Source: a virus
IMG/VR virus record: IMGVR_UViG_3300025769_000046
Location: 1 to 33,561 of that record
Direction: 5' to 3' (one strand)
DNA length: 33,561 nt
Shown here: positions 1 to 31,825 of the stretch, piece by piece
How the letters are laid out: each line of letters begins with the position of its first letter
Numbering within the stretch: the stretch's first letter is position 1
Made by a program: the position numbers and the translations under genes
The notes under the pieces: model-generated
The model's database searches: none
What the model saw: only the letters and a program-made list of their open reading frames with translations
What the model was told of the DNA's origin: nothing

Positions 1-86
1 TGTACTCAGAACATCAGTACAACATTCACATTGGTGATCTAACGTCCAGACATGAGGCAGCAAAAGAACAATATAACTTGCCTTAA
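1..86 (+). CDS. 3' end of the hypothetical gene that starts at 33155 (partial, duplicated by the contig overlap)
   Basis: This stretch encodes the last 27 residues plus stop (TAA at 84-86) of the 123-residue protein whose full copy lies at 33155-33526. It appears here only because the contig ends overlap by 121 bp. On the circular genome there is one gene, and it lies directly upstream of the YqaJ exonuclease gene. It is not a separate or broken gene. Confidence 0.9.
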   Translation, partial: YSEHQYNIHIGDLTSRHEAAKEQYNLP

Positions 87-106
87 CTGCACATATGCAG
101 TAGAAT
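78..106 (+). promoter_or_regulatory. Sigma70-like promoter ahead of the recombination operon
   Basis: A -35-like TTGCCT (78-83), a 17-nt spacer and a -10-like TAGAAT (101-106, five of six consensus bases) lie just ahead of the exonuclease gene at 127. The 14-bp dyad CTGCACATATGCAG occupies the spacer exactly, so a bound protein would block RNA polymerase. The promoter boxes are seen in the sequence; their activity is inferred. Confidence 0.5.
87..100 (+). promoter_or_regulatory. Operator candidate 1 of 3 (TGCA-N4-TGCAGT dyad)
   Basis: CTGCACATATGCAG is an inverted repeat with ACTGCA/TGCAGT arms around a 4-nt centre. Sister copies lie at 30770-30783 and 32304-32317, all in the early half between or at gene starts. 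This copy lies between the -35 and -10 of the promoter that would drive the exonuclease, annealing-protein and SSB genes. A likely ligand is one of the HTH proteins encoded at 32319 or 32485 (inference). Confidence 0.55.
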
Positions 107-126
107 CAAAAAAAAAGGAGAACACA

Positions 127-900
127 ATGAACCGCAAAGGTTTTATAGGCGGTAGTGACTGCGTTAAAATTATGAACGGTGAATGGTACGAGCTATGGCA
201 AGTAAAGACTGGTCGTGCTGAACCAGAAGACCTGTCTAATAATTTACCAGTGCAGCTTGGTACATTCACTGAAGACTTCAATCTGCAATGGTTTGAAAAG
301 CAACACAACGTAGTGCTTGCCGCACATCAGAAAGAATTTATTAGCAAGGTTGGTGAAGTACCAGTCAAAGGCACAATAGATGCTGGCGTTCGAGGAGAAC
401 GCAACATCGTTGAAGCCAAACACACTAATGCCTTTACCAATATGGACGAACAAATCGGACGTTACATGCCACAGATACAGTTGTATTGCCACTTGGCAAA
501 CTGTGAAGGTGCCTATCTCTCTGTAATTTTTGGCAATAGTAAATGGGAAAGCGCACATGTCGCGTATGATGAAGAGTATTTCAATTCAATGTGGGCAGTG
601 GTGTCAGACTTCTGGGGCTATGTGCTACGCGACGAAGAGCCGATTGGTATTGACACGCCGAAAATCTCAATCAACCAAATTAAAGTTGACGATATGGTCG
701 TTAGAGATGCCACTCTGGACAACCAGTTCGTTGACGCAGCCGTTACTTACGTTAATGGTATCGAACACAACAGAACGTTCGAGAACGCCAAGAAACAGTT
801 AAAAGATATGGTCGCAGATAATGAGCGTGAGGTGTACTGCGACTACATAACAATCAAGCGTGACAAGCGCGGAGCCTTGCGCATAACCAAACGTAATTAG
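127..900 (+). CDS. YqaJ-like viral recombinase / 5'-3' exonuclease
   Basis: A 257-residue PD-(D/E)XK-fold nuclease of the YqaJ/lambda-Exo group, predicted to resect double-stranded DNA ends in the host cytoplasm so that the annealing protein encoded next can pair strands. Visible motifs are the family start GGSD (residues 8-11), Glu49 in GTFTED, the catalytic Asp85 in KGTIDAG, the E-x-K pair Glu96/Lys98 in VEAKH, and the helical QIQLY segment (116-120) that closes the site. I chose the ATG at 127 over an in-frame upstream start at 52 because it has the strong Shine-Dalgarno AAAGGAGA at 115-122, and because residues before it overlap the previous gene. It is the first gene of a tight cluster (exonuclease, ERF, unknown, SSB), 10 bp from ERF. 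Family assignment is solid; polarity of digestion is family knowledge. Confidence 0.88.
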   Translation: MNRKGFIGGSDCVKIMNGEWYELWQVKTGRAEPEDLSNNLPVQLGTFTEDFNLQWFEKQHNVVLAAHQKEFISKVGEVPVKGTIDAGVRGERNIVEAKHTNAFTNMDEQIGRYMPQIQLYCHLANCEGAYLSVIFGNSKWESAHVAYDEEYFNSMWAVVSDFWGYVLRDEEPIGIDTPKISINQIKVDDMVVRDATLDNQFVDAAVTYVNGIEHNRTFENAKKQLKDMVADNEREVYCDYITIKRDKRGALRITKRN

Positions 901-910
901 GAGAACACTA

Positions 911-1339
911 ATGTCTAAAAATATAGTAAGCCTGTTAATCAAGGCGCGTAAAGATATACAACCGCCAGCCAAAACTGGCACCAACCCACACTTTCGCAGT
1001 CGTTATGTAACGCTCGAAGGTTGCATAGAAGCAGTGACACAGCCGTTGGCTAATCACGGCTTCTTTATTAGCCAACAAGTATCCACCAATGAACATGGTT
1101 CGTTTGTAGATACTATTCTTATGCATGAGGATGACCCCAATTGGGAGATGATTTCTCATGTGCCACTTGTACTCGGCAAGAATGACATGCAGGGATTGGG
1201 TAGTGCCATTACCTACGCTCGTCGGTATGGCATTATGTCTTTACTTAATCTTCCAGCTGAGGATGATGATGGCAATGCAGCCTCGCGCTCAAGCGGCCCC
1301 CCACAAGGCCAAGCGCAGAGCAGCGGAGGCGATTGGTAA
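911..1339 (+). CDS. erf: ERF-family single-strand annealing protein
   Basis: A 142-residue member of the ERF superfamily, which coats and anneals complementary single strands and works with a partner exonuclease. Diagnostic segments are NPHFRSRYVTLE (residues 25-36) and GSAITYARRYGIMSLL (about 97-112), followed by the acidic AEDDDGN. The last 20 residues are a Ser/Gly/Gln-rich tail ending SGGDW, perhaps a protein-interaction tail. It is shorter than many ERF proteins (about 200 residues), so the C-terminal domain is reduced. The start is supported by GGAGAACACTA right before the ATG; the GGAG overlaps the stop of the exonuclease gene. The stop overlaps the next start as TAATG. With the exonuclease and SSB it forms a Red-like recombination module. 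Confidence 0.9.
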   Translation: MSKNIVSLLIKARKDIQPPAKTGTNPHFRSRYVTLEGCIEAVTQPLANHGFFISQQVSTNEHGSFVDTILMHEDDPNWEMISHVPLVLGKNDMQGLGSAITYARRYGIMSLLNLPAEDDDGNAASRSSGPPQGQAQSSGGDW

Positions 1340-4719: not shown

Positions 4720-7548
4720 TTACACAACCCTAATCTTTAAGTTTTGCGCTGCATTAGAGGTAATGCGAACCTTGTTGTTTGCTGGGAAGTCAAAGTCATA
4801 GTCAGTCCCTAGCACCGCACCTTGGTTTATTGTGGCAGCATCATAGTTAATTGTTACGCCATCTGAGCTTGGAACAGTTGTTGCCGCAGTGTCTTGCTTG
4901 AGTGCGATCATCAGGTCTAACGTATCGCCTAACGTGAAGTGAGAGCCATCTGCTACTGCGTCTAGCTGTGTTTTGTCCATGCGGTTCACAGATGTAGCAC
5001 CTAGTGCTTCCTGTAGTGCATAGAACTCATCGTTAGTTGTGGCGTTAGTCCATGTGGTGTTGGTGCTGTAAGTAATTACAGTAGTGTCAGTACTGTATTG
5101 ATAGACATAGTTACTAAAGTCTATAACATACATTTTCTGTCCATCATTACTAAAAGCTATATCTCTTGGGTTAGTGGTCTGTCCTGTATGGTCAAAAGCA
5201 GTATTGCTATATGTAAGGGTAGACAGATCAAAGTTTGTGCCAAAATCATAAACATAAAGTCTGTCATAATCACTATCAACCATGTATAATTCTGAACCGT
5301 CAGACTTAACGACAATACCTTTAGGGGCAGACACAAGACCTGCTGAAGTCGTTAAGAATGAAACATTATTGTAAGATGCTGTTGAAACATCCCATGCAGT
5401 TGAGAGATCAAACTGATAAATATACTTAGATTGATTACCCAACACCCACATACGAGTACCATCGTATTTAAAATCAACACTAAAAGGAGAAGTGTCTTGC
5501 GAGGTCATATTAAACGACTTGCTTGCATAGGTTGCTGTAGTAATATCCCAAGCGGTGCTTAGAGTGTATTGGAAGATGGTGTTATTTGTATCCCCAAGCA
5601 TATACATTTTTGTACCGTCTGCCGAAAGAGTAACATCCCTTGGATCAGCGTCTTGAGAGTTTGTAGCTAATGAAGATTCAGCACCTGCCGTAGATACATC
5701 GTAAGCTGTAGACAAAGTTCTTTGATAAGTGAGCAAGTTGTTTTTGACGTAATATATCTTTGTTCCGTCATTGCTAATCTCAAAGCCATTTATACTACCG
5801 TCAAGGAATCTGTTCTTATTGTCGTAAGTACCACCCGCAACGTCCCAACCAACGGTGCTAGAACTTTCCTGACTATTATACTGCCAAGTACCCGCATTAT
5901 TTCTCACAATAGGACGAACACCATCGCTTGCCTTTGCGACTGACCAAGTGGTGCGATCATCTGTGGATACTGCATAGTATGCCTCACCATAATCACCCAA
6001 TGTTTGATCGGCAGTCATGCTGTTGATGTCTGTCCAGTATTGGCTGTCTATTTGCCCAGAGCTATTGGTAACGCCTATGTGATATTGAGATGTAGGTTGT
6101 ATGAGTTGACCAATATCAAACTGATAAACAGTAGTGCCTCCAGCATCATTAATATACATTCTTGTTTCATCATCACTAATATAAAATCCACCACTAGCCG
6201 ATGTAGAATAAATTGTTTTATTGAAGGTTGTGTCGTGTGTTCCTGTGCTAAAATCCCAAGCAGTTGTGAGGTTCCATTTTCTTAGCTTGCTATTATCGCC
6301 TCCAATATAAACCGTTAAACCATCTGTAGTGAATTGAATATCGTAAGGAAAAGTATCAATACTAGCTATAGGAGTATCTCTAACATACGAACCGCTAGTA
6401 ACATCCCAAGCTGTAGTCATTTGCCATTCAGTTACACGATCTGTGTTTCTACATACTGTCCAGAACCTTGTTCCATCTGGCTTGAAATAAAATCCATTAA
6501 ACCCACCATTTACTCTAGTGCTTGCGTACACACTAAAGCTGCCATTGTGGCTTGCTGTATTTACCGCCCAAGCTGTACTTAAATTGTACTGATGTACTCT
6601 ATCCCCATCCTGTCCAGCCATATACATTACTGTTCCATCGGATTTAAAATGTATATCAACAGGGCCACCATCATTGCCACCAACAGCTTTACTGGCAGTT
6701 GCGCCATTAGGGACAGTAGACAAATCCCAAGCCGTGCCAAAATCCCATTGATAAACGGTGTCATCCGTAGAATTTACAACGTATAGTTTTGTGCCATTGT
6801 CACCAATAAACATACCTTGGTTGCCACCAGAAATATGATTGGATGTGCTTCTTGTCGCGCTATGTCCACTAGCACTTTCAATCACGCTATAATCACCACT
6901 GGTTGCTAAACCTGACATAGACAAACCAGTTGATGCACCAGCCGATTTGATGCCACTCATTGACCAAGAGCCAGAAGCAATGGCACTTGTATCCGTAAAG
7001 TTAGTCACAATAGAATATGAACCATTTGTGCCAGTAAGGATTGCAACACCACCATTACCTTCAATCTGCTTACCCACATCTGTTGATGCAAAAGAACCAG
7101 TGCCTAGTGTAAATGTACCATCAGCCGATGCATTGCTTGGTGTTAGTGTCGTGCTATACGCAGTGTTATGCAGATCATAGTTGGACGCTGTTGCATCAAC
7201 ATCCCAATTACCTTTAGATGATACACCAGTTTGCGCTACTTCTTTTGTCACCTCAACTACTGGCGCGGGTGTTATGCTTTGCGACAAGGTAATTGTGGCA
7301 CTCTCACCGTTGGTAAATGTCTTAGTAAGGCTTCCAGATGTGACACTGACGTTATTAAGCTGGGATTGCAAAGAACTGGTTGAGCCAACGACATTATTTA
7401 GTTCCGCAGTTGTAGCGGTTAAACCGTCCAGCTTGTTGATCTCCGCAGCCGTAGCCGTTAAATCGCTGATCTCCGACACATTAATTGCACCATCCGCAAG
7501 TGCATTCCCTGCGCTGATTAGGTCGGCTAAGTCTCTTGCTTTGGTCAT
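4720..7548 (-). CDS. Large beta-propeller tail fibre / receptor-binding protein
   Basis: A 942-residue fibre. The N-terminus (MTKARDLADLISAGN, then TATAAEINKLDG/TATTAELNNV repeats to about residue 52) is the attachment style of marine phage fibres. Two blocks of propeller blades follow, at about 243-480 and 585-820. Each blade carries the pattern DGTxxYxxG..D.VYQ(W/Y).(L/F)(S/G)TAWD(V/L)STA; about nine to ten blades can be counted. Between them lies a non-repeat domain (about 495-570), and the C-terminal 110 residues (from WTNATTNDEF to LKIRVV) form a separate domain. Such YncE/NHL-like blades are common in adhesins, so this is a likely cell-surface binder. It lies 6 bp after the second fibre gene and shares no RBS gap with the next gene. 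Blade count and domain limits are by eye. Confidence 0.8.
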   Translation of the reverse strand: MTKARDLADLISAGNALADGAINVSEISDLTATAAEINKLDGLTATTAELNNVVGSTSSLQSQLNNVSVTSGSLTKTFTNGESATITLSQSITPAPVVEVTKEVAQTGVSSKGNWDVDATASNYDLHNTAYSTTLTPSNASADGTFTLGTGSFASTDVGKQIEGNGGVAILTGTNGSYSIVTNFTDTSAIASGSWSMSGIKSAGASTGLSMSGLATSGDYSVIESASGHSATRSTSNHISGGNQGMFIGDNGTKLYVVNSTDDTVYQWDFGTAWDLSTVPNGATASKAVGGNDGGPVDIHFKSDGTVMYMAGQDGDRVHQYNLSTAWAVNTASHNGSFSVYASTRVNGGFNGFYFKPDGTRFWTVCRNTDRVTEWQMTTAWDVTSGSYVRDTPIASIDTFPYDIQFTTDGLTVYIGGDNSKLRKWNLTTAWDFSTGTHDTTFNKTIYSTSASGGFYISDDETRMYINDAGGTTVYQFDIGQLIQPTSQYHIGVTNSSGQIDSQYWTDINSMTADQTLGDYGEAYYAVSTDDRTTWSVAKASDGVRPIVRNNAGTWQYNSQESSSTVGWDVAGGTYDNKNRFLDGSINGFEISNDGTKIYYVKNNLLTYQRTLSTAYDVSTAGAESSLATNSQDADPRDVTLSADGTKMYMLGDTNNTIFQYTLSTAWDITTATYASKSFNMTSQDTSPFSVDFKYDGTRMWVLGNQSKYIYQFDLSTAWDVSTASYNNVSFLTTSAGLVSAPKGIVVKSDGSELYMVDSDYDRLYVYDFGTNFDLSTLTYSNTAFDHTGQTTNPRDIAFSNDGQKMYVIDFSNYVYQYSTDTTVITYSTNTTWTNATTNDEFYALQEALGATSVNRMDKTQLDAVADGSHFTLGDTLDLMIALKQDTAATTVPSSDGVTINYDAATINQGAVLGTDYDFDFPANNKVRITSNAAQNLKIRVV

Positions 7549-7554
7549 GTTACG

Positions 7555-9114
7555 TTATCCTTTTACTAATAGCCTGTTTGATGCTAATGCTCTACCCGCA
7601 GTCTGAGAGCCTGATGTTGACAGACCCCCACCTAAAACAACGTAATAACTAGAGCCAACTGTTAATCCCGAAACGCTTTCATTTATGCCGCCGAATACGG
7701 TGACCTCGCCTGACGAACCAGAAGCTATGTTTTCTGCCGCTATGCCCACAAAGCCAGACTGATCACCTGTGGCAACTTGGACAAATACAACATCACCTCT
7801 ATCTGAAAGATCGGCTTCACCATAAGCAATCCAAACAGCACCCTGACCTGCATCATAATCCATGCTTACATTCTGCGTATAACTAGGGCCATGACTTGAT
7901 GTGGTTGAACCTTGCGTGTAAGCACTATTAACACTATCCCATGTCATGCTTGTTAGTTTACTAGCACTCCCAGTTTGATCACGGTAACTAAGATATAAAG
8001 TTTCCAAGGCTGCAGCTTCTGCTATTTCAACGTCCCTTGATGACCTTCCACTAGCAAAAACAGTTTCGGTTCCTGTTGTAATGCTTGTTCCGCTTACAGT
8101 TAAGTTTTGCACCCGCAGTGTACTGCCAGCATAGTAAAACGGAACGACATAACCATTTGTGCTATCGTATGCTGCTTTCATATAACCATCTATTGTTCCA
8201 GCATAAAACTTGACAGGTGTGCCAAAACTGATTGATGTCCCGCTGACTGTACCTACCAGCGCATAAGCGTGGTTATCAAAACCTGATCTAAAAATACAAA
8301 CGACTTTATTGTTTGTTGAATCAAATACTATATCATTCATGGTTCTGGATGAACTTGGCAAAGTCGAAGCCTGTGAATTGCTTGCTACTGGAGTGCCAAA
8401 ACTTACAGTGGTATTGGCTGCATCTACAGTTCCAACAACACAAGTTGCTTTGTTACCATTATCAGTATCTCTGTAGAACAAAACAACCTTTTGCGCATTA
8501 GAATCGTACACTGCCTGTATGTCCGTAATTAAAGATGCATCGGCAGTTACAGTGGAGCCAACAGTCCATGTGCCACTTGAGCTTAGTTTAGCAACACGAA
8601 CATTTAAGTTTCCACTATCAGAATTGTCTCTCCAACAAAAAACATATGCGTCTTGATCTGGATCATATACACCAGTTCCTTGTGAGGTGTTATTCGTTGT
8701 GACCGTTACATCTTGTACAGCGGTCATAGCACTTGAACTAAATGGGTTAGTTGCATCTGGTAGATAAGAGTAAACACGAAAATAGCCATTAGCACTATTT
8801 ATATATCCAACAACACCATAGCCATTTGGGTTTGCGTGTACAAAAGTAAAATAGGTTGCATTGCCATTATATGTTTTGAGTGCAGCACTTCCAAAAGATT
8901 TAGTTACAGAAAACTTACCAATGTTTCCATTGCTTTTTAGTTCAACAGCATCACCAGCCGTGATTGCTTCATCTGCCGTAAAATCAAAACTACCACCGCC
9001 GCCACCAACGCCAGCCGCTGACAACGCAGCTACAGTTGTTGCATCGACAGACGCAATGTTGGTTAGCTGTCTGCTATCATCTACTACGGTTGTACCGCCT
9101 ACTTTAATCGCCAT
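7555..9114 (-). CDS. Second tail fibre, propeller-like repeats
   Basis: A 519-residue fibre starting MAIKVGGTTVVDDSRQL, a common marine-phage fibre start, followed by a glycine hinge (GVGGGGGS, about 35-42). From about 120 to 430 there are blade-like repeats of about 45 residues with the pattern (Y/F)DS(T/N)NxxVVxxFYR...VGTVxGTxxSFGTPV. The C-terminal region (GFVGIAAENIASGSSGEVTVFGG.. to LLVKG) is a conserved closing domain of such fibres. It probably forms a receptor-binding or carrier fibre with the 942-residue protein. AAAGGACACGA precedes the start, 15 bp after the adaptor-fibre stop. Confidence 0.78.
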   Translation of the reverse strand: MAIKVGGTTVVDDSRQLTNIASVDATTVAALSAAGVGGGGGSFDFTADEAITAGDAVELKSNGNIGKFSVTKSFGSAALKTYNGNATYFTFVHANPNGYGVVGYINSANGYFRVYSYLPDATNPFSSSAMTAVQDVTVTTNNTSQGTGVYDPDQDAYVFCWRDNSDSGNLNVRVAKLSSSGTWTVGSTVTADASLITDIQAVYDSNAQKVVLFYRDTDNGNKATCVVGTVDAANTTVSFGTPVASNSQASTLPSSSRTMNDIVFDSTNNKVVCIFRSGFDNHAYALVGTVSGTSISFGTPVKFYAGTIDGYMKAAYDSTNGYVVPFYYAGSTLRVQNLTVSGTSITTGTETVFASGRSSRDVEIAEAAALETLYLSYRDQTGSASKLTSMTWDSVNSAYTQGSTTSSHGPSYTQNVSMDYDAGQGAVWIAYGEADLSDRGDVVFVQVATGDQSGFVGIAAENIASGSSGEVTVFGGINESVSGLTVGSSYYVVLGGGLSTSGSQTAGRALASNRLLVKG

Positions 9115-9129
9115 CTTCGTGTCCTTTCA

Positions 9130-11217
9130 CTAGGTGATTGTTGCATTGGTGTTGACGTTACCGACCACATCAAGGTTGCCGTTTGCATCTAGCTTCATCT
9201 TGTTCACACCGCCTGTGGCAAAGTACAAAGCCCCGCCAAGTTCAGTGATTGTCCAGTTGCCAAAACTAATCGGCTTGTTGAACGCCCAATTATCGCCAGT
9301 TGATTGATAGAGGATTGTTGCGCCAGCACCGTCCACAGTAATACCAGCACCGTTAGCCGCAGCCGCATTTGCCGCACCATTTGCAACAGTGATGTTTAAG
9401 TCAGCAACGTCTAGCGTTGTGCTGTTTACCGTTGTGGTAGTGCCTGAGATTGTCAGGTTGCCGCCAACAATTAAGTCGCCTGTAAGTGTACCGCCTGTTA
9501 GCTGTAGGTAACGAGCGTCTGACTGTGACTGAGTGTAAACTGATGTTAGCTCAAATGTGCCATAGGCAATGTACTCAACGATGTCACCCGCAACCGCCCC
9601 TGTTGTCAGGGTAAAGGTAGTTCCGTTTGTCGCAGTAACGTCTGTGCCTACAACGAGCTTAACACCGTTTAGATAAATATCTATGAACCCACTATCATAG
9701 CCAGTTGTAGTAAATACTGTTTGCCCAGATGTAGCAGTGAATGTACCGCGTGATGATGTACCGTTTACAGATGAACCCGCGTTCTGGAATGAAGATCCGT
9801 TATACACCTTCATTGTATCTGTTGAGGTATCGAACCACAGCAACCCTTCGTTGGCACTAGATGGTGCAGTTCCAGAAATAGTGTACTGATTAGAGAAACT
9901 ATTAACTGAGCTAATGTTGTTGCTCACGTTAGTGACAGAGCTAATGTTAGTTGCCACTGTGTTTACAGACGAGATGTTAGTGCCGACTGTAGAGATGTTA
10001 GAGGCATTGCTAATAACAGCAGTCAGGTCAGTGTTAGCCACTGTAGAAATGTCTGCGCTAATTCCAGCCACAGTTGTCACATCAGAGCTAATCCCCGCAA
10101 CAGTCGTAACATTGCCAGATATTCCTCCAACCGCATTCACATTAACAATGTTGGTTGCCACAACCCCAATGTCACTGGCATCCGCAGCCACCGCCGTAAC
10201 GTCTGCCGAGATACCCGCTACTGTTGTCACGTTACCGCTGATTGTTCCCACTGTGTTGACGTTGGCAATGTTATTCGCAACAACCTCAATCTCACTTGTC
10301 GCCTCGTTTAGATCATTAGCAACAGTCTCAATCTCAGACACAACCTCTAACAGATCGTTAGCCACTGTGTTGATGTTGCTGATGTTAGACGCGACAGTGT
10401 TAACTGCGTTGATGTTTGTGGCAACGGTTGTCACGTTAGTGTTGTTCGATGAAACTGTCGTAATGTCAGTTGAGATTGGTGCTAGAGTTGCCACTTCACT
10501 AGATACAGATGCCACTGTAGTAACATTGGCTGAAATGCCAGACACAGTAGTAACATTTGCAGATATGCCAGACACAGTAGTAATGTCAGTGCTTATTGCT
10601 CCAAGCGTTGCAACCTCAGAGCTAACAGATGAAACTGTAGTAATTGTGTTTGTTGCTATAGTTCCGTCTTGAATATCAGCAAGCAAAGCAATGTCAGCAG
10701 AAACATTAGCCAAGCTTTCCGTATCAGCAATAGAAGGGCCAGCTTCAACCGCACCAGTAACCGCATTGAATCCAAGAACTCGCCCTTTACGATCATCAAC
10801 AACAGGTAGGGTTAATCCAGCAGCAACATCAAAGTCTGTAAGCTGGAGAGCACGAGCAGCGCGGTCATCAAGGTCAGCAGCAATAGCAATAATGCGATCA
10901 AGCTCAGTGTTGAGAGTGGCGATATTAAATGCACCAGAAGCGGGAAAGTCAGTTGTGCGCTCTAGGTCAATGTCACGCGTAATAACGACTGTAGACCCCC
11001 CTGACGCGCCTGTGACAGATATTGTAACAGTGCCAGTAGAGCCATCACCACCTGTGACAGTGTAATCAGTGGTTAACGTCTTAAGTGTGCCATCAACATA
11101 GACATTCAAATCATCATTGTCGAAGAACTCAAATGACACAGTAAACGAGGTTTGAGTGACACCCTGAGCCACTGAGTATGACACACGAGGGGAATTGTCT
11201 GCTATGTTAATTGTCAT
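9130..11217 (-). CDS. T7-type tail-fibre adaptor with decapeptide-repeat shaft
   Basis: A 695-residue fibre. Residues 1-130 match the T7 gp17 N-terminal tail-attachment domain: VAQGVTQTSFTVSFEFF, ITRDIDLERTTDFPASGAFN and the coiled LNTELDRIIAIAADLDDRAARALQL. Residues about 187-441 are some 25 units of a 10-residue repeat of the type ISxNVTTVAG, likely a long trimeric shaft. Residues 457-481 (LWFDTSTDTMKVYNGSSF) and the later GGTLTGDLIVGGNLTI.. region are domains shared with marine myovirus and podovirus fibres. No propeller or peptidase-type receptor domain is seen, so it probably anchors the two propeller fibres encoded next. A copy of the late motif lies 51 nt upstream. Confidence 0.88.
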   Translation of the reverse strand: MTINIADNSPRVSYSVAQGVTQTSFTVSFEFFDNDDLNVYVDGTLKTLTTDYTVTGGDGSTGTVTISVTGASGGSTVVITRDIDLERTTDFPASGAFNIATLNTELDRIIAIAADLDDRAARALQLTDFDVAAGLTLPVVDDRKGRVLGFNAVTGAVEAGPSIADTESLANVSADIALLADIQDGTIATNTITTVSSVSSEVATLGAISTDITTVSGISANVTTVSGISANVTTVASVSSEVATLAPISTDITTVSSNNTNVTTVATNINAVNTVASNISNINTVANDLLEVVSEIETVANDLNEATSEIEVVANNIANVNTVGTISGNVTTVAGISADVTAVAADASDIGVVATNIVNVNAVGGISGNVTTVAGISSDVTTVAGISADISTVANTDLTAVISNASNISTVGTNISSVNTVATNISSVTNVSNNISSVNSFSNQYTISGTAPSSANEGLLWFDTSTDTMKVYNGSSFQNAGSSVNGTSSRGTFTATSGQTVFTTTGYDSGFIDIYLNGVKLVVGTDVTATNGTTFTLTTGAVAGDIVEYIAYGTFELTSVYTQSQSDARYLQLTGGTLTGDLIVGGNLTISGTTTTVNSTTLDVADLNITVANGAANAAAANGAGITVDGAGATILYQSTGDNWAFNKPISFGNWTITELGGALYFATGGVNKMKLDANGNLDVVGNVNTNATIT
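9895..10659 (-). repeat. Coding tandem repeat, 30-bp units (decapeptide shaft)
   Basis: About 25 degenerate 30-bp units encode decapeptides such as SGISANVTTV and ATNINAVNTV inside the adaptor fibre. Two neighbouring units (SGISANVTTV twice) are nearly identical at DNA level, around 10530-10590, showing recent duplication. Two longer units (ANDLLEVVSEIETV and ANDLNEATSEIEVV) interrupt the phase with four extra residues each. Confidence 0.8.
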
Positions 11218-11281: not shown

Positions 11282-14200
11282 TTAGTAACGACCAAATCCA
11301 GATGGGCCTTCCAACTCATCTTCAAGCATATTGGTGATGTCGTTCATCTTGCCCTTCCAGAACCACATCCTAGCAAATGGCAAGTTTCTAACTATTTCTT
11401 TAGTACCTTCGCCAACATTTCCAGTCAGTAAGTTGTATATTCCTGTGCCATAATCTAACGCAATAGACGGCCCCGCACCTAACACTCCTGTTGCAGCTTC
11501 ACCTAAGTTTGGCTTTTGAGGAAAGCGTGGTTGTAAAAATCCATTAGTAAGATTAGGGCCACCCAATGCCATACTTGTAGACATTGCTGTGTAGAACAAA
11601 TCTGAATACAAAGCTGCGGTGCCAGAGTAATCAAATGAACGTGCCAGTTTATCTTGGAATGACAGGTCAACAAAGTCTGGCGTTTTGTAATCCAACACCA
11701 TGTATCCCAAGCCCATAGATAAAGCTAACCCAAGGAACTGGCTCTTAACCTGACCGTGTGCATGTGCCGCTGCAATCTTGTTTGTTGCTGCAAGGGCATA
11801 GCTATAGAACTGAAATGGTAAGCCAAGAAGCTGGCTTTCAACACGAGCATATCCTTTGTACTTAGCATCTTCTTTCATGCCAAAGTTACGAGCTACACGC
11901 ATGGGAATGTAAGCAACGCCATCTGTAATGATTGGCTTATCAGCAGGTGTCCCCATAAGAATTGTATTAGCGACACCGCTAGACAATGCGGTTCTGAATC
12001 TACGAACAGTATCATCTTTCACTCTAGGTTGCGCTCTAAACTCAGCAATGGCTAAATCGTTAATAGCATTCTCGTATGCAGCAAGGTCTGCTTTCTTACG
12101 ACGATCAAAGCCTAAATCTTTAGAACTATTTCTTGTGTGCATAATTTCATGCATCTTAACAAAAGCTACTAAGTCATCTGGGCTGTTGATAATCCCATCT
12201 GGAATTGGCTTAACACCTTCCATCTTAGGATTCTTCCAGCCTTGGCTATTCCACATTTCAGTGCGAATAAATTCTTCGTCAATGAAGATTGTGTCTTTGC
12301 CATTGTAGTGGGCCGCTACATAGCTGCCATCTTTTCTTGTGCGACCAGTTGGCCCAGAAACAATGGTGGCTTTGGTTTCAGGGAACTGTATTGCATTGTT
12401 CCACGCACCAGTGTTCGCAATATACATTCCTGATTTGCCACGCTGCCAAGGTGCCTTTGCAATATCCGCTGCAACCTCTGCGTCTATGCCATACCGCGCT
12501 AGGTATTCCATTTCCATGCGCGTTGCATTGCCATTCGTTAGTCTTACTGAGTAGTCAATAAGAGTGTGGCTGCGCATCATCGCATCAAAGTCTTTGAAGA
12601 TACGAGTAATTGGTGCCAAACCATTAGCTAAATAAAAGTAGTTCTTAGCCTTATCAAACACAGTATCTTTAAATGGATTGTTGCTAAGATCATCTACCAA
12701 ACGCAAATGAGCAGAACCCATAATAATCTCAAGTGCCTCACCAGCAATCCGAGCTTCTTTAGCCCCAAGCTTTAACTGGTTGTCTGACATAATGTTAAAC
12801 AAGCCCTTCATCGTAGGGCCAAAGCCATGCTCAAGAACCATCTTTGCTGGCTCAGTAATTGTAGAAATACCCGCAGAACCTAGATAATTTAACTGTGCTA
12901 GATCACGAAGAACCTGCGCAATAGTAGCATCCCAAGTATCTGCTCTACGCAAAGCATTGCCTGACACACGATCATACAGATGGCGCATGTCACGAAGAAC
13001 AGAGTAAGCTTTTGCCTCTGTCATACCAGACGATAGCAAATCAATCATTGTATCGTCTAAGACTTCATCAATATCCTTGCCACCAAACTGACGAGAGAAC
13101 TCATAACGAGTGCCAGTTCTAGCAGTGTATGCCTTCATAATCTTGATTGGATTCTTTTCTATAAAATCCAACACAAGTTCGTTTGGAATATCTACAGTAC
13201 GATGCTTCATGTGCTTTGACTTACCAATGCCAAAGTATCCTGAATCAAAATTAGTATCATCGCGCAAACCAAGAAGATTATCTGTTAGCTCAGTCACACG
13301 TTTTCTAATTGCGTTCTCGCCAGTTGATAACTGTATAGTTTCTAGCTTACCGTTTTTAAATCTTGTTAGCTGTGCAGGGTTGTCCTTAAACCAGTTGAAC
13401 AATACTGACTCAAACTTTTCCCTGTTAGCAGAGATAGCATCCCGATCCCAATACCGAGGACGGAACACTCGCTCGTTTCTTGGCATTGTTGGCTGTTGCT
13501 TTGCATCATCAAGCATAACCTTTAGCTCTTCAACTTCCGAGGTTAGCTTTGATATGGTGCCTTGCAACTTGTTCTTTAAAGATTTTGTTCCTCTACTCGC
13601 AGATTGATCCAACTGCTTTTGCAGTTTAACTATCTTGGCTTCTTTGCGCTTTAGCTCATCAGCGTAGAAACGAGAGCTACCAATCATTCCCTGCTCTCTT
13701 AGGCGAATCTCCCAAGTATCGTAATACTTGTTGAGCGTTGCCATTGCTCTAGCCTCAAAGTCATCAGCAGCCTTGATGCCCTTCATTGCTTTGGTGTCTA
13801 CCATTTGCAGCCATTCTTCAAAGTCACGGCGTTTAAAGTGATAGTCTAGTGGATTAGTAACACCCTTCTTAGTTGACTCGCCCCAAGTGATAAGCATCTC
13901 ATCCATTGCCTGAACCCACTCACCTTCAAGCAGCTTTGAGTTCTGGAACACAGATGGACGCAGAGCTTTGCCTTGCTTATTCATGGCAAGCAAAATACCA
14001 GCATCGTTTGCAATTTCTAAAGCAGTAATACGCGCACTATCGGGAATAGACTTGTCTTGTAAGATGCGCTTCATAGGCGTTGTTACGCCTTTATACAGCC
14101 ATGAATCAGTAAACATGCTAGGAGCAATGCTTGCATCATCTGAATCTAATGCTTGTCTAAAGTTTTGTATTTCTGTTTCAGCTTCACGAATAGCTCTTGC

Positions 14201-14776
14201 ACGGCGTGACACTGGAACACGAGTTAATCCACCAAGCATTCCACCAAATACAAATGACGCACCAATACTAAACTGTGCTTCCTCTGGTGTTGCCAGCGGA
14301 TCAAATGGATAACGTAATGCTTCCTGACCTGCCACAATAGCAGCGGTTCCTGTGCCAGACTGAAGGGCTGCACGGCTGACAGACAAACCACGGCTAAGTG
14401 GAATGGCAACCCAATTGATAGGATCAAATATCTCAGCAGCAAACTGCGCACCAAATCCCGACTCAGCAAGCGTTTGCCTTGTCTCTAAAGACTGACGCAT
14501 CTGTGTTTCTAAGAAGTTAAGATGCTCTTGGTTGGTTGCTCGAAGAAGCGTAGAAGAATATGGTTTTAAGTCCTCTGATATATTTTCTAAAGCAGAGAAC
14601 CCTTCTTCTGGTAAATCGTATGTACCAAAGCGAGACTGCTCTTCAATAAAGTCAATAAGTGGATCGTAACGATAAGCCAGGGTTGCGCCGACAGTATCCA
14701 TGAACGATGGGGATTCTGAAAGCTGTGCGCCTCTAGACGCAGCAATTTGAGGAACCGTTGTTAATCCATTTTTCAT
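11282..14776 (-). CDS. Large internal virion / DNA ejection protein with HEIMH metalloprotease motif
   Basis: A 1164-residue protein in the position of T7 gp16, the largest ejection protein, expected to leave the head first and help build the DNA channel across the cell envelope. An unexpected zincin signature, MHEIMHT, lies at 875-881 (HExxH at 876-880), followed 22 residues later by Glu902 in AYENAINDLA, a spacing and context like gluzincins of the ImmA/IrrE style. A hydrophobic segment with beta character precedes it (GKDTIFIDEEFIRTE, 826-840). A coiled coil lies at about 373-425, and several Gly/Ala-rich possible membrane stretches lie at about 140-185 and 1014-1030. No lysozyme-like transglycosylase domain is seen. 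The start overlaps the preceding gene by 4 bp (ATGA). The virion role is from gene order; protease activity is inference. Confidence 0.75.
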   Translation of the reverse strand: MKNGLTTVPQIAASRGAQLSESPSFMDTVGATLAYRYDPLIDFIEEQSRFGTYDLPEEGFSALENISEDLKPYSSTLLRATNQEHLNFLETQMRQSLETRQTLAESGFGAQFAAEIFDPINWVAIPLSRGLSVSRAALQSGTGTAAIVAGQEALRYPFDPLATPEEAQFSIGASFVFGGMLGGLTRVPVSRRARAIREAETEIQNFRQALDSDDASIAPSMFTDSWLYKGVTTPMKRILQDKSIPDSARITALEIANDAGILLAMNKQGKALRPSVFQNSKLLEGEWVQAMDEMLITWGESTKKGVTNPLDYHFKRRDFEEWLQMVDTKAMKGIKAADDFEARAMATLNKYYDTWEIRLREQGMIGSSRFYADELKRKEAKIVKLQKQLDQSASRGTKSLKNKLQGTISKLTSEVEELKVMLDDAKQQPTMPRNERVFRPRYWDRDAISANREKFESVLFNWFKDNPAQLTRFKNGKLETIQLSTGENAIRKRVTELTDNLLGLRDDTNFDSGYFGIGKSKHMKHRTVDIPNELVLDFIEKNPIKIMKAYTARTGTRYEFSRQFGGKDIDEVLDDTMIDLLSSGMTEAKAYSVLRDMRHLYDRVSGNALRRADTWDATIAQVLRDLAQLNYLGSAGISTITEPAKMVLEHGFGPTMKGLFNIMSDNQLKLGAKEARIAGEALEIIMGSAHLRLVDDLSNNPFKDTVFDKAKNYFYLANGLAPITRIFKDFDAMMRSHTLIDYSVRLTNGNATRMEMEYLARYGIDAEVAADIAKAPWQRGKSGMYIANTGAWNNAIQFPETKATIVSGPTGRTRKDGSYVAAHYNGKDTIFIDEEFIRTEMWNSQGWKNPKMEGVKPIPDGIINSPDDLVAFVKMHEIMHTRNSSKDLGFDRRKKADLAAYENAINDLAIAEFRAQPRVKDDTVRRFRTALSSGVANTILMGTPADKPIITDGVAYIPMRVARNFGMKEDAKYKGYARVESQLLGLPFQFYSYALAATNKIAAAHAHGQVKSQFLGLALSMGLGYMVLDYKTPDFVDLSFQDKLARSFDYSGTAALYSDLFYTAMSTSMALGGPNLTNGFLQPRFPQKPNLGEAATGVLGAGPSIALDYGTGIYNLLTGNVGEGTKEIVRNLPFARMWFWKGKMNDITNMLEDELEGPSGFGRY

Positions 14777-17700
14777 CGAATAAATCCACCTAGAATGCCC
14801 CGAGATAATGCGCGACCATATGCTGATTCTTTAGCTGGCTCATTAAGTGGGCCAAACTGTGCTTGACGATTTTCAACTGCATTTTGCTCCTTGGCAATTC
14901 TGTCAGCTTCAGACTTCCTACGAAAATCTGCCGTTAAATCCATGTCAAACATAGGCCATGTAAGCTCAACTCTTTGGTTCATAGTCCGAGGGTCATATAC
15001 AGTGCGCTCATAGATTAAAGGTCTAAGCTCACCTGTTTGTGGCTCTTTGTAGTAAGCATAGTATTGAGGTGCATTTGTAACACCATATGGCATTAGGTAA
15101 ACTTCTCTACCTTCAACTGTTGGGTCAACACGTTCTCTAATTAGTCGCTCCATACCTTCAGCTTCTTTTGTTTTTCCTGAAGTTGTAGTTGCTAATGAAT
15201 AACCCTCTGGCAAGTTTTGATTTACTAATCTAATAAACTCATTTCTTTCTTCCTCTTGTGGGAACACAATGCCCAGCGCAAATCTTGACCGAGAAAAAGA
15301 ACCAACTGGCATTGAAGGATCAACGATATAATCAGACTTCAAGTATAATGTATCAACAATATTATCTGTAAGAGAATCAATGTCATTTAGTGTGCGACCA
15401 GTTTTGGCATAATACTCAACAATAGGTGACAACTCTTTAACAATCATCTTATCGTTGTCGTATTTACTTCTTAGATAATTCTGAACTACATTTCCACCTG
15501 ACCCTTTGTACTCAGAAAGAACCTCTAAATCTCCATCTGCGGCTCTCTTTTTAAGGTCACGAATAATTCCAGAGATAGGAATTGTACTTCCTGTTGCTAA
15601 GTTTCTAATTGCCAAGGCGTCATCAAGAAGACCTTTGTTTAGCTCTAAGCCATACAAACCATCAACAACACCATCAGCCGTTAACCTGTTGCGCAACCTT
15701 GCATAGTGGTTCATCAAAACATTTGCTTGCTCTTGAGTGAATGAACCTTCGTCTGAACCTAGCGTTTTAAGTGCTTGATATAAATTCTCTGACATAGTGA
15801 CTGACATCATTTGATAGAACTCATCAGTCTCAGAATTTGGAGATAGAATGTCTATTCCCTTTCTTGCCAGTTCATCATCAATTGCTTCTCTGTGTTCCTT
15901 TGTTTTTGTAACGCCACCATAACGAGCTTCTTGTGCAAGATCATACTGCTCTCTTGCTATACGCGCCTCTTCCGCTTCTTGTATTTCGCGGGTTCTTTCA
16001 TCAGCCTCACGCCCGCTCAACTCTTGAAGGATGCGAGTTCTGTTTTGGTCGTTTATAAATGAGAAGATGCCATCAATAGTTTCTTTTTCAGTAGGACTTA
16101 GCCCTTGGTCATCTTGACCACCAGTTCGTATGTATGTTGAGATATTATTTAAGTCACCAGATGATAAGTCACTTAATGAATTTACTCCTTGAATAACTCT
16201 AGCAGTTTGCATTCTAAGTTTAAGAGAATCTTTTTCTGCCGTTGTGTGCAGTATGCTTGCATCTATACTTTCAAAAGATGACTGCCACTCACCTACATCA
16301 TCCTCACCAGTCATAATATTGTTTATCAAGTCTGATATGCCATTATCAAAATCAGACTTCTTTGTGTAATTATCTATTGCAGTCTTTACTGTATCTTCTG
16401 AGTCCCCGAGCAACTGGCGAATGTATGTTACATCATCAGCATCAAATGGTATCTTTCCATTCCGCAATCCATTGGCAACGGACAATTGAAACTCTGTTAG
16501 ACTTTCAGCTGCCCTTGGGTTCTTAGATGTAATATACAGAGCAAGATCATTTACATTGCCATCACTAGCAGCGGCAATCATAAGTGGCGTTAAAACTGAG
16601 CGACGAATATCTTCATTAATTGCTCGTCTAGCGTCCGCTGTAAGATCGGTTCCAGCAGCAGCAGTTTCTTTCAAAAGCTGAGATGCATCATCTATTGCTG
16701 CGTTTATTGCAGTTTGCAACGCAATATCACGTTGAGTTGGGTCTAACTCATTTGCGTTGTTATAAGCATCTAATATTGAATTGTAAGAAGTGGCTTCTAA
16801 TCCATCAGCATCACTTAGAAATGTGTTAAGCAAAAACTTCTTATTATTTGCCAAACGTTCTTTTTCATTGGCTTCTGCTATTAGCTCAATAGAGGTTAGA
16901 GTGCCATTAATGTTAGAGCCATAGCTTGTTAGTGTGCCTTTGTTTTGAGCCGTTACATAAGGCAATATCTCATCAATGGCAGCTTTTACTTCTGACGATA
17001 GGCCATCAGTCTTCTTGCGACGAATAGCATCTATAATCTTTAGTCTGGTTGTTCTAGACTTACCTTCAAAGATTACATCAAGTCTTCCCTGAACAAACGC
17101 GGTCTGCATGGCATTCTCATGCACTGAGTGTGTGCCACGCTTAGTAATGTTAGCATTCTCACCGTCTTTGTTTCGGTTTACTGAACTCTCAAGAAATGGT
17201 GCAAACTTATCAACCTGACCAGATTGCCCCATTAAGTAAGCAGCTTCTACGTTCTCTGTATTTTTTAGACCAATAGAAACGCCTAGCTTTTCACGCTCTC
17301 TACGATTGCGCTCTTGCATCATGTTCAGCTTTGTTGCTGTCACATACTGCGCACCCTGAGACATAATGAAGTTAGTATAAAGAGTTGGCTGTCCATTCTC
17401 CTCTGATGCTGATGCCATCTCTTTGAGATAGTTATTCATCTGCTGTTCGTACTTCTCAGGAGAATACGGATCATTCTCAAACTTGAGAGCAAGCTCGCCA
17501 GCCTTTTCTTTTATTTCATTTTCTATCTCTTGCTGGAATCTGTCATTGATTACACGAGTATAAGCCTCTGCGCCAACACGTCCCATAAACCGAGATTCAC
17601 CAACCCAGTCTAAAGCTTCTGGCTTTCCAGTTTTTGGATTAATAGATGTAATCTTTGAAGAGACTACAGCTTGAGCCATCTCTTCGCCTTGGCGTGCTGA

Positions 17701-17850
17701 CTCTCGCCCCATCTCTTTAATTGCCAAGCTTGTTAGCTTTTGAGTGGCATCAGCAATTCTGGAGTATTTCTCAGTTTCTCCAAGGTTCATTCGCACAACG
17801 CCTACTGGCCCTGCGCTTTCTACCTGCCGCTTTTCTCTAATTACTGGCAT
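14773..17850 (-). CDS. Internal virion / DNA ejection protein (gp15-like position)
   Basis: A 1025-residue, mostly helical, charged and soluble protein with no membrane segment. Gene order (after the gp14-like gene and before the gp16-like gene) and size point to the T7 gp15-type ejection protein that polymerises in the periplasm during DNA entry. Helical runs include MQERNRREREKLG (about 177-189) and the charged EADERTREIQEAEEARIAREQ (about 634-654), a probable coiled coil. The C-terminus has Arg/Gly-rich GRALSRGILGGFIR. It overlaps both neighbours (TAATG at the start, ATGA at the stop). No enzymatic motif was recognised. Confidence 0.75.
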   Translation of the reverse strand: MPVIREKRQVESAGPVGVVRMNLGETEKYSRIADATQKLTSLAIKEMGRESARQGEEMAQAVVSSKITSINPKTGKPEALDWVGESRFMGRVGAEAYTRVINDRFQQEIENEIKEKAGELALKFENDPYSPEKYEQQMNNYLKEMASASEENGQPTLYTNFIMSQGAQYVTATKLNMMQERNRREREKLGVSIGLKNTENVEAAYLMGQSGQVDKFAPFLESSVNRNKDGENANITKRGTHSVHENAMQTAFVQGRLDVIFEGKSRTTRLKIIDAIRRKKTDGLSSEVKAAIDEILPYVTAQNKGTLTSYGSNINGTLTSIELIAEANEKERLANNKKFLLNTFLSDADGLEATSYNSILDAYNNANELDPTQRDIALQTAINAAIDDASQLLKETAAAGTDLTADARRAINEDIRRSVLTPLMIAAASDGNVNDLALYITSKNPRAAESLTEFQLSVANGLRNGKIPFDADDVTYIRQLLGDSEDTVKTAIDNYTKKSDFDNGISDLINNIMTGEDDVGEWQSSFESIDASILHTTAEKDSLKLRMQTARVIQGVNSLSDLSSGDLNNISTYIRTGGQDDQGLSPTEKETIDGIFSFINDQNRTRILQELSGREADERTREIQEAEEARIAREQYDLAQEARYGGVTKTKEHREAIDDELARKGIDILSPNSETDEFYQMMSVTMSENLYQALKTLGSDEGSFTQEQANVLMNHYARLRNRLTADGVVDGLYGLELNKGLLDDALAIRNLATGSTIPISGIIRDLKKRAADGDLEVLSEYKGSGGNVVQNYLRSKYDNDKMIVKELSPIVEYYAKTGRTLNDIDSLTDNIVDTLYLKSDYIVDPSMPVGSFSRSRFALGIVFPQEEERNEFIRLVNQNLPEGYSLATTTSGKTKEAEGMERLIRERVDPTVEGREVYLMPYGVTNAPQYYAYYKEPQTGELRPLIYERTVYDPRTMNQRVELTWPMFDMDLTADFRRKSEADRIAKEQNAVENRQAQFGPLNEPAKESAYGRALSRGILGGFIR

Positions 17851-18356
17851 TATTTACCTCCTCCGCCACCGCCTCTTTTAGGCTTTACTAAAGATGGCCC
17901 AAGGTTCTGAGCAATATCAGCTAAGTTTGTAAACAGGTTTGCTGTGGCTTGGGTTCTCATACCTGCCGCTGTATTTTGACCATAGGTGTAAGCAACAGCA
18001 GCTTGAGTAGCATATTTTGCTGAGAGTATTTCTGATTTACGATCTATCTCTGCTATATCAGCAGCAGCAATGTCTTGGTTTCTTTTTAAGAAAGCATCAA
18101 CTGACCTATCATCACGCTCCATCTTGCCAAACATTGCTAAGTTAGCAGACTCAGATTGAGTAAGCTCTTCCCGTCTGCGATTTGCTGCACCAATGGCTTG
18201 CGCTTTAGCTAAGAATAGTTCGTTAACAAACTGACGACCCTCTAGCTTGCCAACTTTCTCAGCTTTCTCAGCCGCAGCTTTTTGGTAATCGTAGCTTTTC
18301 TTTGCGCCAAATAGACTTAATCCAAATGTTGCTATTTCAAGTGGGCCGATGGGCAT
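17850..18356 (-). CDS. Small internal virion protein (gp14-like)
   Basis: A 168-residue protein. The N-terminus is hydrophobic and Gly-rich (MPIGPLEIATFGLSLFGAKKS), then comes an Ala/Lys/Glu-rich helix (DYQKAAAEKAEKVGKLEG) and helical RRREELTQSE, and it ends in GGGGGGK after a basic PKRG. This is the composition of T7 gp14-type ejection proteins, which insert in the outer membrane in T7. Position directly after the nozzle gene and before the two large ejection proteins supports the call. Start and stop both overlap neighbours as TAATG. Confidence 0.75.
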   Translation of the reverse strand: MPIGPLEIATFGLSLFGAKKSYDYQKAAAEKAEKVGKLEGRQFVNELFLAKAQAIGAANRRREELTQSESANLAMFGKMERDDRSVDAFLKRNQDIAAADIAEIDRKSEILSAKYATQAAVAYTYGQNTAAGMRTQATANLFTNLADIAQNLGPSLVKPKRGGGGGGK

Positions 18357-30810: not shown

Positions 30811-31005
30811 ATGGATATAAACATTCACAAAGTGAAAGAGGTGCGTGAACAAATCAGCCACTACACTAGTGGCATTAAGTTCATTTGCCGCAATCTGATT
30901 ATCGTAGATGAAAGCGGTAATGAATTTAAAATCAATTTCTTCACTGAAAAAGATGAACGTGCAATTGCACCACTTAAAACAGAACGGAGCTATCACAATG
31001 CTTGA
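30811..31005 (+). CDS. 64-residue protein upstream of the DUF932 gene
   Basis: MDINIHKVKEVREQISHYTSG.., then strands IKFICRNLIIVDESGNEFKINFFTEKD, so an alpha plus beta-hairpin mini-protein; one Cys. Not recognised. The ATG at 30811 is preceded by CGGAGAACAAC; a frame starting upstream would cross the operator. Its 3' end overlaps the DUF932 start by 8 bp. Confidence 0.75.
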   Translation: MDINIHKVKEVREQISHYTSGIKFICRNLIIVDESGNEFKINFFTEKDERAIAPLKTERSYHNA

Positions 31006-31825
31006 TATGACAAACGAATGGAGCTTTCCAATTGAAACGCAACCTGTCTTTGACATGCATGGCAATGAGATTGATGGGCAACAATGCATCATGCGCACTG
31101 ACACCAACAAAGTGTTAGGCGTACACGGCTCTCGCTACAAAGCAGTAAGCCATGATGATGTTGTCAATTCAATCTTAGATGGTGTGTCACAAGCAGACTT
31201 ATCGAATGACTACACCGTTGACGTTGAAGTCTTAGAAGATGGACGCAAACTACGCGGTCAGATTCTATTCAACGATTTAGTGGTAGAGCCTGAGGTCGGT
31301 GACCACGTTAAGTTCAGAGTCAACTTCTTTAATAGTTACGATGCCTCTTGGCCTTTCTCTCAAATCGCAGATGCCTTTAGATTATGGTGCAAGAACGGAT
31401 GCACCACGCCTGATGCAGTAGCTAAGACACGCTACAAACATACTGCGTCTATCAACGTAGAAGGTAGTGCCAATAAAATGATTAATGGTTTGCAACACTT
31501 CATGTCACGCAAGGAAGTGTGGCAGTCATGGATGCGCACACCAGTGACAGACGCACAGATAGAGAACTTCTTTAAGAAGACTGTAGCCAAAGCGTTCACG
31601 CGCCAAGTGACAGTCTCTAAGACTAACGAGAAGCAGCTTGAGAACTTGCTGTCTATCTGGAGCAACGAAGCGGCTGCGCTAGGCCACAACAAATGGGCTG
31701 CGTACAACACGCTAACCTATTGGGCAACGCACACTGGCGAACTGCGTTCACCGCATACTGCGCGTTACAATCGTGAAGCAGCCATTGCATCTGCAATGCG
31801 CAACAAAGAATGGGAGTTTGCTTAA
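30998..31825 (+). CDS. DUF932 family protein
   Basis: A 275-residue protein of the DUF932 (phage/plasmid-like) family, found on many phages and plasmids. Recognisable pieces are LGVHGSRYKAVSHDDVVNSI (about 40-59), the GRKLRGQILF strand pair, DHVKFRVNFFNSYDASWPF (about 103-121), and RLWCKNGCTTPDAVAK (about 131-146). The function of the family is not established; association with plasmid and phage replication or early takeover has been suggested. The ATG at 30998 (CGGAGC 9 nt upstream) is preferred over a frame start at 30908 within the previous gene. TAATG overlap with the next gene. Confidence 0.85.
   Translation: MLDMTNEWSFPIETQPVFDMHGNEIDGQQCIMRTDTNKVLGVHGSRYKAVSHDDVVNSILDGVSQADLSNDYTVDVEVLEDGRKLRGQILFNDLVVEPEVGDHVKFRVNFFNSYDASWPFSQIADAFRLWCKNGCTTPDAVAKTRYKHTASINVEGSANKMINGLQHFMSRKEVWQSWMRTPVTDAQIENFFKKTVAKAFTRQVTVSKTNEKQLENLLSIWSNEAAALGHNKWAAYNTLTYWATHTGELRSPHTARYNREAAIASAMRNKEWEFA

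What the first reader, a model, noticed from the sequence alone, without database searches (positions are those of the whole stretch)
12137..12151. Zinc-metalloprotease motif HEIMH inside the largest DNA-ejection protein
The 1164-residue gp16-like protein has MHEIMHT at 875-881 and Glu902 in AYENAINDLA 22 residues after the motif, a gluzincin/IrrE-like spacing. T7 gp16 instead carries a transglycosylase. A virion protein with a protease that enters the host first could cut envelope proteins for DNA entry or inactivate a host defence protein.
Basis: partly seen in the sequence, partly recalled or inferred. Interest (0 to 1): 0.68.

Follow-up and report, generated by a model that had tools for sequence, protein, structure and literature searches.

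The report
Injected phage protein carries metalloprotease cassette
A marine short-tailed phage carries, inside the large protein it pushes into the cell ahead of its DNA, a removable metalloprotease-like domain that related phages have kept intact, lost cleanly, or kept at another site in a form that can no longer bind metal; it probably cuts a protein just inside the host membrane, but no activity has been shown.

Summary
The motif is real. HEIMH (H876, E877, H880) and E902 lie in a 1164-aa T7 gp16-like ejection protein (12137-12151, minus strand). Chance expectation for HExxH in this protein is 0.008. They sit in a discrete cassette (residues ~797-925) that AlphaFold2 predicts confidently (pLDDT 87, pTM 0.82), with HExxH and E902 on two consecutive helices. 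Foldseek's best PDB matches are gluzincins (selecase, lethal factor, M48), none significant. HE[IV]xH is present in all 61 distinct active-type IMG/VR segments collected; E902 is invariant in the 41-row alignment. One nested clade deleted the cassette cleanly. Pelagibacter phage Hodr and relatives carry a homologous copy at another site with both histidines replaced (KKE[VI][YL][RK]). Mapped on T7 gp16, both sites fall in the part assigned to the host cytoplasm; the protein lacks T7's periplasmic transglycosylase. So an accessory gluzincin-like peptidase acting in the cytoplasm at the DNA entry site is likelier than an envelope enzyme. Substrate, metal and activity are unshown. Zincins in ejected phage proteins are known (N4 virion RNA polymerase, polyvalent proteins). 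This domain matches no Pfam zincin, no PDB sequence, and not the N4 domain beyond the motif: a new variant of a known kind.

The parts
11282..14776 (-). T7 gp16-like largest ejection (internal virion) protein, 1164 aa
   Evidence: phrog_342 E=7e-40, residues 16-793 on profile 216-1018; hhalign to T7 gp16 E=3e-6; gene order tail tubular B / gp14-like / gp15-like / gp16-like / fibre
12002..12388 (-). zincin cassette, residues ~797-925, inserted in the C-terminal (gp16-C) part
   Evidence: absent as a block in 14 homologues with colinear flanks; AlphaFold2 pLDDT 87, pTM 0.82 for residues 793-929
12137..12151 (-). HEIMH: H876, E877, H880 (putative metal ligands and general base)
   Evidence: present in all 61 distinct active-type segments; lies in predicted helix 866-882
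12071..12073 (-). E902, putative third metal ligand, in AYENAINDLA on the next helix (895-915)
   Evidence: invariant also in the Hodr-type copies
14773..17850 (-). gp15-like ejection protein by position (context)
   Evidence: gene order only; no family match
17850..18356 (-). gp14-like ejection protein by position (context)
   Evidence: gene order only; weak phrog_2700

Best explanation
Residues ~797-925 are an accessory, gluzincin-like metallopeptidase domain inserted in the C-terminal (cytoplasmic) part of a T7 gp16-type ejection protein. It is packed in the virion with gp16, ejected ahead of the DNA and, when gp16 refolds across the inner membrane, displayed on the cytoplasmic face at the DNA entry site. 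There it binds a metal ion through H876, H880 and E902 and, with E877 as general base, cleaves a protein, most likely a host protein that would hinder the incoming genome. Shown by computation here: the cassette, the invariant residues, loss in one clade, a metal-site-dead copy at another site in a sister group, and the mapping of both sites onto T7 gp16-C. Inferred from T7: ejection and topology. Inferred without direct evidence: metal binding, peptidase activity, host substrate.
For: HExxH and E902 invariant. Confident model with strands followed by the HExxH helix and the glutamate helix. Best PDB fold match is the minigluzincin selecase, and lethal factor and an M48 peptidase recur among 29 weak hits (BlaR1). 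Variable inserts between the two helices (0 to ~234 aa extra), as described for polyvalent-protein zincins (PMC5512222). Clean removal in 13 tree rows nested inside the zincin-bearing clade: gp16 works without it, so it is accessory. Insertion sites map to T7 residues ~1067 (this clade) and ~460-475 (Hodr group), both within gp16-C 411-1118 placed in the cytoplasm. Weak lead: ArdC genes, which carry another zincin, occur in 3 of 7 records >=25 kb without an active cassette and 0 of 25 with one (Fisher P=0.007, not corrected for ancestry).
Against: Foldseek hits to solved zincins are individually not significant (best E=0.5), and no sequence or profile match links the domain to a known zincin family. 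The gluzincin glutamate-helix signature Exx(A,F,T,S,G) is not met: residue +3 from E902 is an invariant Ile. The metal-site-dead but conserved copies in the Hodr group show that the fold can be kept without catalysis. In ArdC the peptidase site was dispensable for the tested phenotype (PMC7213743). The topology comes from a T7 model and the alignment is remote. The ArdC pattern rests on about two independent events and incomplete contigs.
Confidence: 0.45

Rival explanations
1. Self-processing: the zincin cuts gp16 (or gp14/gp15) in the virion or after ejection, releasing or refolding a segment, as proposed for P1 DdrB and other polyvalent proteins.
For: Proposed as a main role of zincins in polyvalent proteins (PMC5512222); the domain sits between gp16-C and the second membrane region, where a cut would free gp16-C from its anchor.
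Against: A nested clade lost the whole domain with colinear flanks, so cleavage is not needed for assembly or ejection there; N4 vRNAP, which also has a zincin, is packaged uncleaved (PMC5512222); no recognised separate effector domain in gp16 to release.
Confidence: 0.22
2. Structural or regulatory fold only: the domain binds partners or DNA or stiffens gp16, and catalysis is secondary or absent, as in the Hodr group.
For: Hodr and relatives keep the fold, including the two glutamates, without the histidines; ArdC works without its metal site in the assay used (PMC7213743).
Against: Both histidines are invariant in 61 distinct active-type segments while many other columns vary; metal binding without catalysis would still need to explain invariant E877.
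Confidence: 0.2
3. Envelope enzyme: the domain replaces the missing transglycosylase and cuts peptidoglycan cross-links or envelope proteins for DNA entry.
For: The T7 transglycosylase region is absent (starts at T7 residue ~172) and no other virion peptidoglycan hydrolase was recognised in the gp15-like protein.
Against: The site maps ~900 residues away from the periplasmic part, in the cytoplasmic gp16-C; the zincin-less clade also lacks the transglycosylase yet persists (L026 begins at profile 251); the Hodr-type copy is dead.
Confidence: 0.08
4. Chance motif in a helical protein without a zincin fold.
For: No significant hit to any solved zincin.
Against: Expected 0.008 per protein, invariant H/E/H plus E902, cassette behaviour, confident fold with gluzincin best hits.
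Confidence: 0.05

Closest known systems
Zincin-like metallopeptidase (MPTase) domains of phage and plasmid polyvalent proteins (Iyer et al. 2017, PMC5512222), including the N4 virion RNA polymerase domain (C1 in PMC12633501)
   Same: HExxH helix then glutamate helix, variable inserts between them, carried inside a large protein delivered into the host
   Different: Different carrier (T7-type gp16); hhalign to the N4 family aligns only around the motif, probability 2-3%; no match to MPTase-PolyVal PF18818 in this protein
ArdC (ArdcN + MPTase-PolyVal)
   Same: Phage/plasmid gluzincin acting in the recipient; related phages Hodr, L130's and L038's carry an ArdC-type gene
   Different: Separate early gene with its own DNA-binding domain; no sequence similarity to the cassette detected
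Minigluzincins / lethal-factor-type gluzincins (selecase, M48, M34)
   Same: Best, though not significant, fold matches
   Different: Glutamate-helix signature Exx(A,F,T,S,G) not met; no sequence similarity
T7 gp16 (internal virion protein D)
   Same: Homologous backbone from T7 residue ~172 to the C terminus
   Different: No N-terminal transglycosylase; extra zincin cassette at T7 position ~1067
Pelagibacter phage EXVC031P Hodr gp16-like protein (WDQ27578.1)
   Same: Same backbone and a homologous domain (hhalign E=8.5e-16)
   Different: Domain ~550-600 residues nearer the N terminus and both histidines lost (KKEVYR)

Membership tests
T7 gp16-type ejection proteins | homology over gp16-C and gene order after tail tubular B, gp14, gp15 | tested here: met
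   phrog_342 E=7e-40; hhalign E=3e-6 over 938 columns; gene order
T7 gp16-type ejection proteins | N-terminal lytic transglycosylase (T7 1-156) | tested here: not met
   protein begins at T7 ~172 / profile 216; the review says this part is phage-specific, not universal (PMC8954989)
Zincin/gluzincin metallopeptidases | HExxH on an active-site helix | tested here: met
Zincin/gluzincin metallopeptidases | glutamate ligand on the following helix | tested here: met
   E902 invariant, helix 895-915; ligation itself not shown
Zincin/gluzincin metallopeptidases | glutamate-helix signature (E,H)xx(A,F,T,S,G) | tested here: not met
   E902-N-A-I905; Ile invariant in the active set (signature quoted in PMC7213743)
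Zincin/gluzincin metallopeptidases | significant fold match to a solved member | tested here: inconclusive
   top hit selecase E=0.5, 13 of 29 hits are gluzincins (mostly one protein, lethal factor), none significant
Zincin/gluzincin metallopeptidases | bound metal and peptidase activity | not testable with these tools
   needs protein
ImmA/IrrE (M78), SprT, MPTase-PolyVal Pfam families | match to the family profile | tested here: not met
   no zincin family among Pfam matches of 21 members up to E=10; PF18818 absent from G000
N4 virion RNA polymerase zincin | profile-profile similarity beyond the motif | tested here: not met
   hhalign probability 2.3-2.7%
Polyvalent proteins | several effector domains in one delivered polypeptide | tested here: inconclusive
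   structural gp16 plus one enzyme-like domain; in L112/L113 a further ~234-aa insert of unproven nature

The most novel reading that the evidence does not exclude
T7-type gp16 ejection proteins carry an exchangeable slot system near the two ends of their cytoplasmic domain, into which effector domains (here a new gluzincin family that can itself carry a nested, possibly ADP-ribosyltransferase-like domain) are inserted, lost or inactivated; the zincin is a virion-delivered protease that disarms a host defence before any phage gene is expressed and is functionally replaced by ArdC in phages that lack it.
Probability: 0.15. Interest if true: 0.82.

Novelty: new variant of a known kind. Interest (0 to 1): 0.57.

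Why it matters
Zincins are reported as the commonest domain of polyvalent injected phage and plasmid proteins, yet their substrates are largely unknown. Here nature supplies three matched versions on one homologous backbone: active-looking, cleanly deleted, and metal-site-dead at another site. That gives a direct comparative and genetic test of what an injected phage metallopeptidase does, and suggests that the cytoplasmic part of the podovirus DNA-ejection machine can serve as a carrier for effectors.

Tried and rejected
Pfam, PHROG, PADLOC scans of the domain: no zincin family. Profile searches of PDB sequences with two alignments: nothing. Domain-only tblastn in annotated phages: nothing for the window's copy; Hodr's copy finds only Hodr. 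Genome collection (84,980 species): 57 pattern matches, none confirmed. N4 zincin as homologue: rejected beyond the motif. Search for a displaced copy of the cassette in zincin-less records: none (no positive control in that run); the HExxH scan of two such records found only ArdC in one and none in the other. The insert in L112/L113 looked ADP-ribosyltransferase-like by eye; Pfam, PHROG and PDB did not confirm it.

Full report
CHECK. The window is a 33,561-base virus record of a podovirus: terminase, connector, major head protein and tail tubular proteins match PHROGs. The minus-strand ORF 11282-14776 (1164 aa) contains KMHEIMHT; HEIMH is residues 876-880, window 12137-12151, and E902 lies 22 residues after H880. 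The protein's composition predicts 0.0085 HExxH by chance; this is its only H...H.

CARRIER. The protein matches phrog_342 (E=7e-40) from profile position 216, whereas T7 gp16 matches from 4. A profile comparison with seven T7-type gp16 proteins aligns it from T7 residue 172 to the end (E=3e-6), so the periplasmic transglycosylase (T7 1-156) is missing. It follows the gp14- and gp15-like genes and precedes a tail fibre, as in T7.

CASSETTE. A viral-contig search gave 43 loci and a domain search 80, most of them the same contigs or close relatives. In the alignment, 14 homologues lack residues ~797-924 with both flanks colinear. In all active-type copies the motif is KMHE[IV][MIY]H and ENAIN follows, while the distance between the two varies by up to ~234 residues. 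Twenty-seven columns are invariant in 41 active-type rows, among them H876, E877, H880 and E902.

SECOND SITE. The gp16 homologue of Pelagibacter phage Hodr has a region (residues 258-371) that the cassette profile matches at E=2.6e-10; profile-profile comparison gives E=8.5e-16. Ten related proteins have it, always with KKE[VI][YL][RK] in place of HExxH, while both glutamates remain. The place that holds the cassette in the window's group carries no copy in Hodr.

HISTORY. A maximum-likelihood tree of the backbone without the domain puts the 13 cassette-less rows inside the zincin-bearing group, next to the window's own subgroup (SH-aLRT 97-100, quick search), i.e. one loss; the Hodr group is the sister. 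Whether the common ancestor had the domain at one site or the other cannot be told; the outgroup branch is very long.

FOLD. AlphaFold2 with 45 sequences: pLDDT 87.3, pTM 0.82; three strands, a helix, the HExxH helix (866-882) and the E902 helix (895-915). Foldseek against the PDB: first hit selecase (a minigluzincin), then several lethal factor entries and an M48 peptidase, 13 of 29 hits, but best E=0.5. BFVD holds four long phage proteins with probability 0.98-1.0, probably relatives. The metal cluster itself was not measured, since coordinates are not returned.

TOPOLOGY AND MECHANISM. In the T7 model, residues 243-410 and 1119-1290 cross the inner membrane and 411-1118 are cytoplasmic (PMC8954989). 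The cassette maps to T7 ~1067 and the Hodr copy to ~460-475, so both sit in the cytoplasmic part, near its two ends. With dispensability in one clade and invariance elsewhere this favours an accessory peptidase acting in the cytoplasm early in infection. Self-processing and a purely structural role remain open. As a weak lead, ArdC (ArdcN + MPTase-PolyVal) genes were found in Hodr, L130's record and L038's record, i.e. 3 of 7 records of 25 kb or more without an active cassette and 0 of 25 with one; relatedness and incomplete contigs weaken this.

COMPARISON. Zincins in delivered phage proteins were described by Iyer et al. 2017 (PMC5512222) and an HExxH domain is seen in the N4 virion RNA polymerase structure (PMC12633501). 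The paper searches found no report of a zincin in a T7-type gp16; the library is open-access only. The domain fails profile tests for the Pfam zincins and for the N4 family, and misses the gluzincin Exx(A,F,T,S,G) signature, so it is filed as gluzincin-like, a new variant of a known kind, not as a member of a named family.

Noticed in passing
L123:19782-20666 (Hodr), L146:19-915 (record of L038), L151 (record of L130): ArdC-type anti-restriction genes (ArdcN + MPTase-PolyVal in the first two; MPTase-PolyVal match in the third) occur only in relatives without an active gp16 zincin in the sample.
   Followed up: partly
L112 and L113, ORF 5547-9815, between HExxH and ENAIN helices: A ~234-aa insert inside the zincin; HYT / MYFT / YDAI pattern resembles ADP-ribosyltransferases by eye, unconfirmed.
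   Followed up: partly
L123-L134, gp16-like protein, P0007 residues 258-371: Conserved metal-site-dead copy of the zincin at a second site of gp16.
   Followed up: yes
after window residue 213 of the gp16-like protein; L026: The cassette-less clade carries a 30-aa insert (YKPTVVDEGF...) close to the site where the Hodr group holds its zincin copy.
   Followed up: no
L069, L075, L076, L087, L096, L110, L115, L118: A deep clade of longer gp16-like proteins (1293-1418 aa) with extra sequence in the N-terminal half of unknown nature.
   Followed up: no
window 30908-31825 +: DUF932 protein (PF06067, E=1.4e-16) in the early region; no match in the two zincin-less genomes compared.
   Followed up: no
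window 52-1339 +: RecE-like exonuclease and Erf-like annealing protein; no tRNA in the window.
   Followed up: no
window 4720-7548 and 7555-9114, minus strand: Two large proteins downstream of the tail fibre without significant family matches; the second has no counterpart in the two relatives compared.
   Followed up: no
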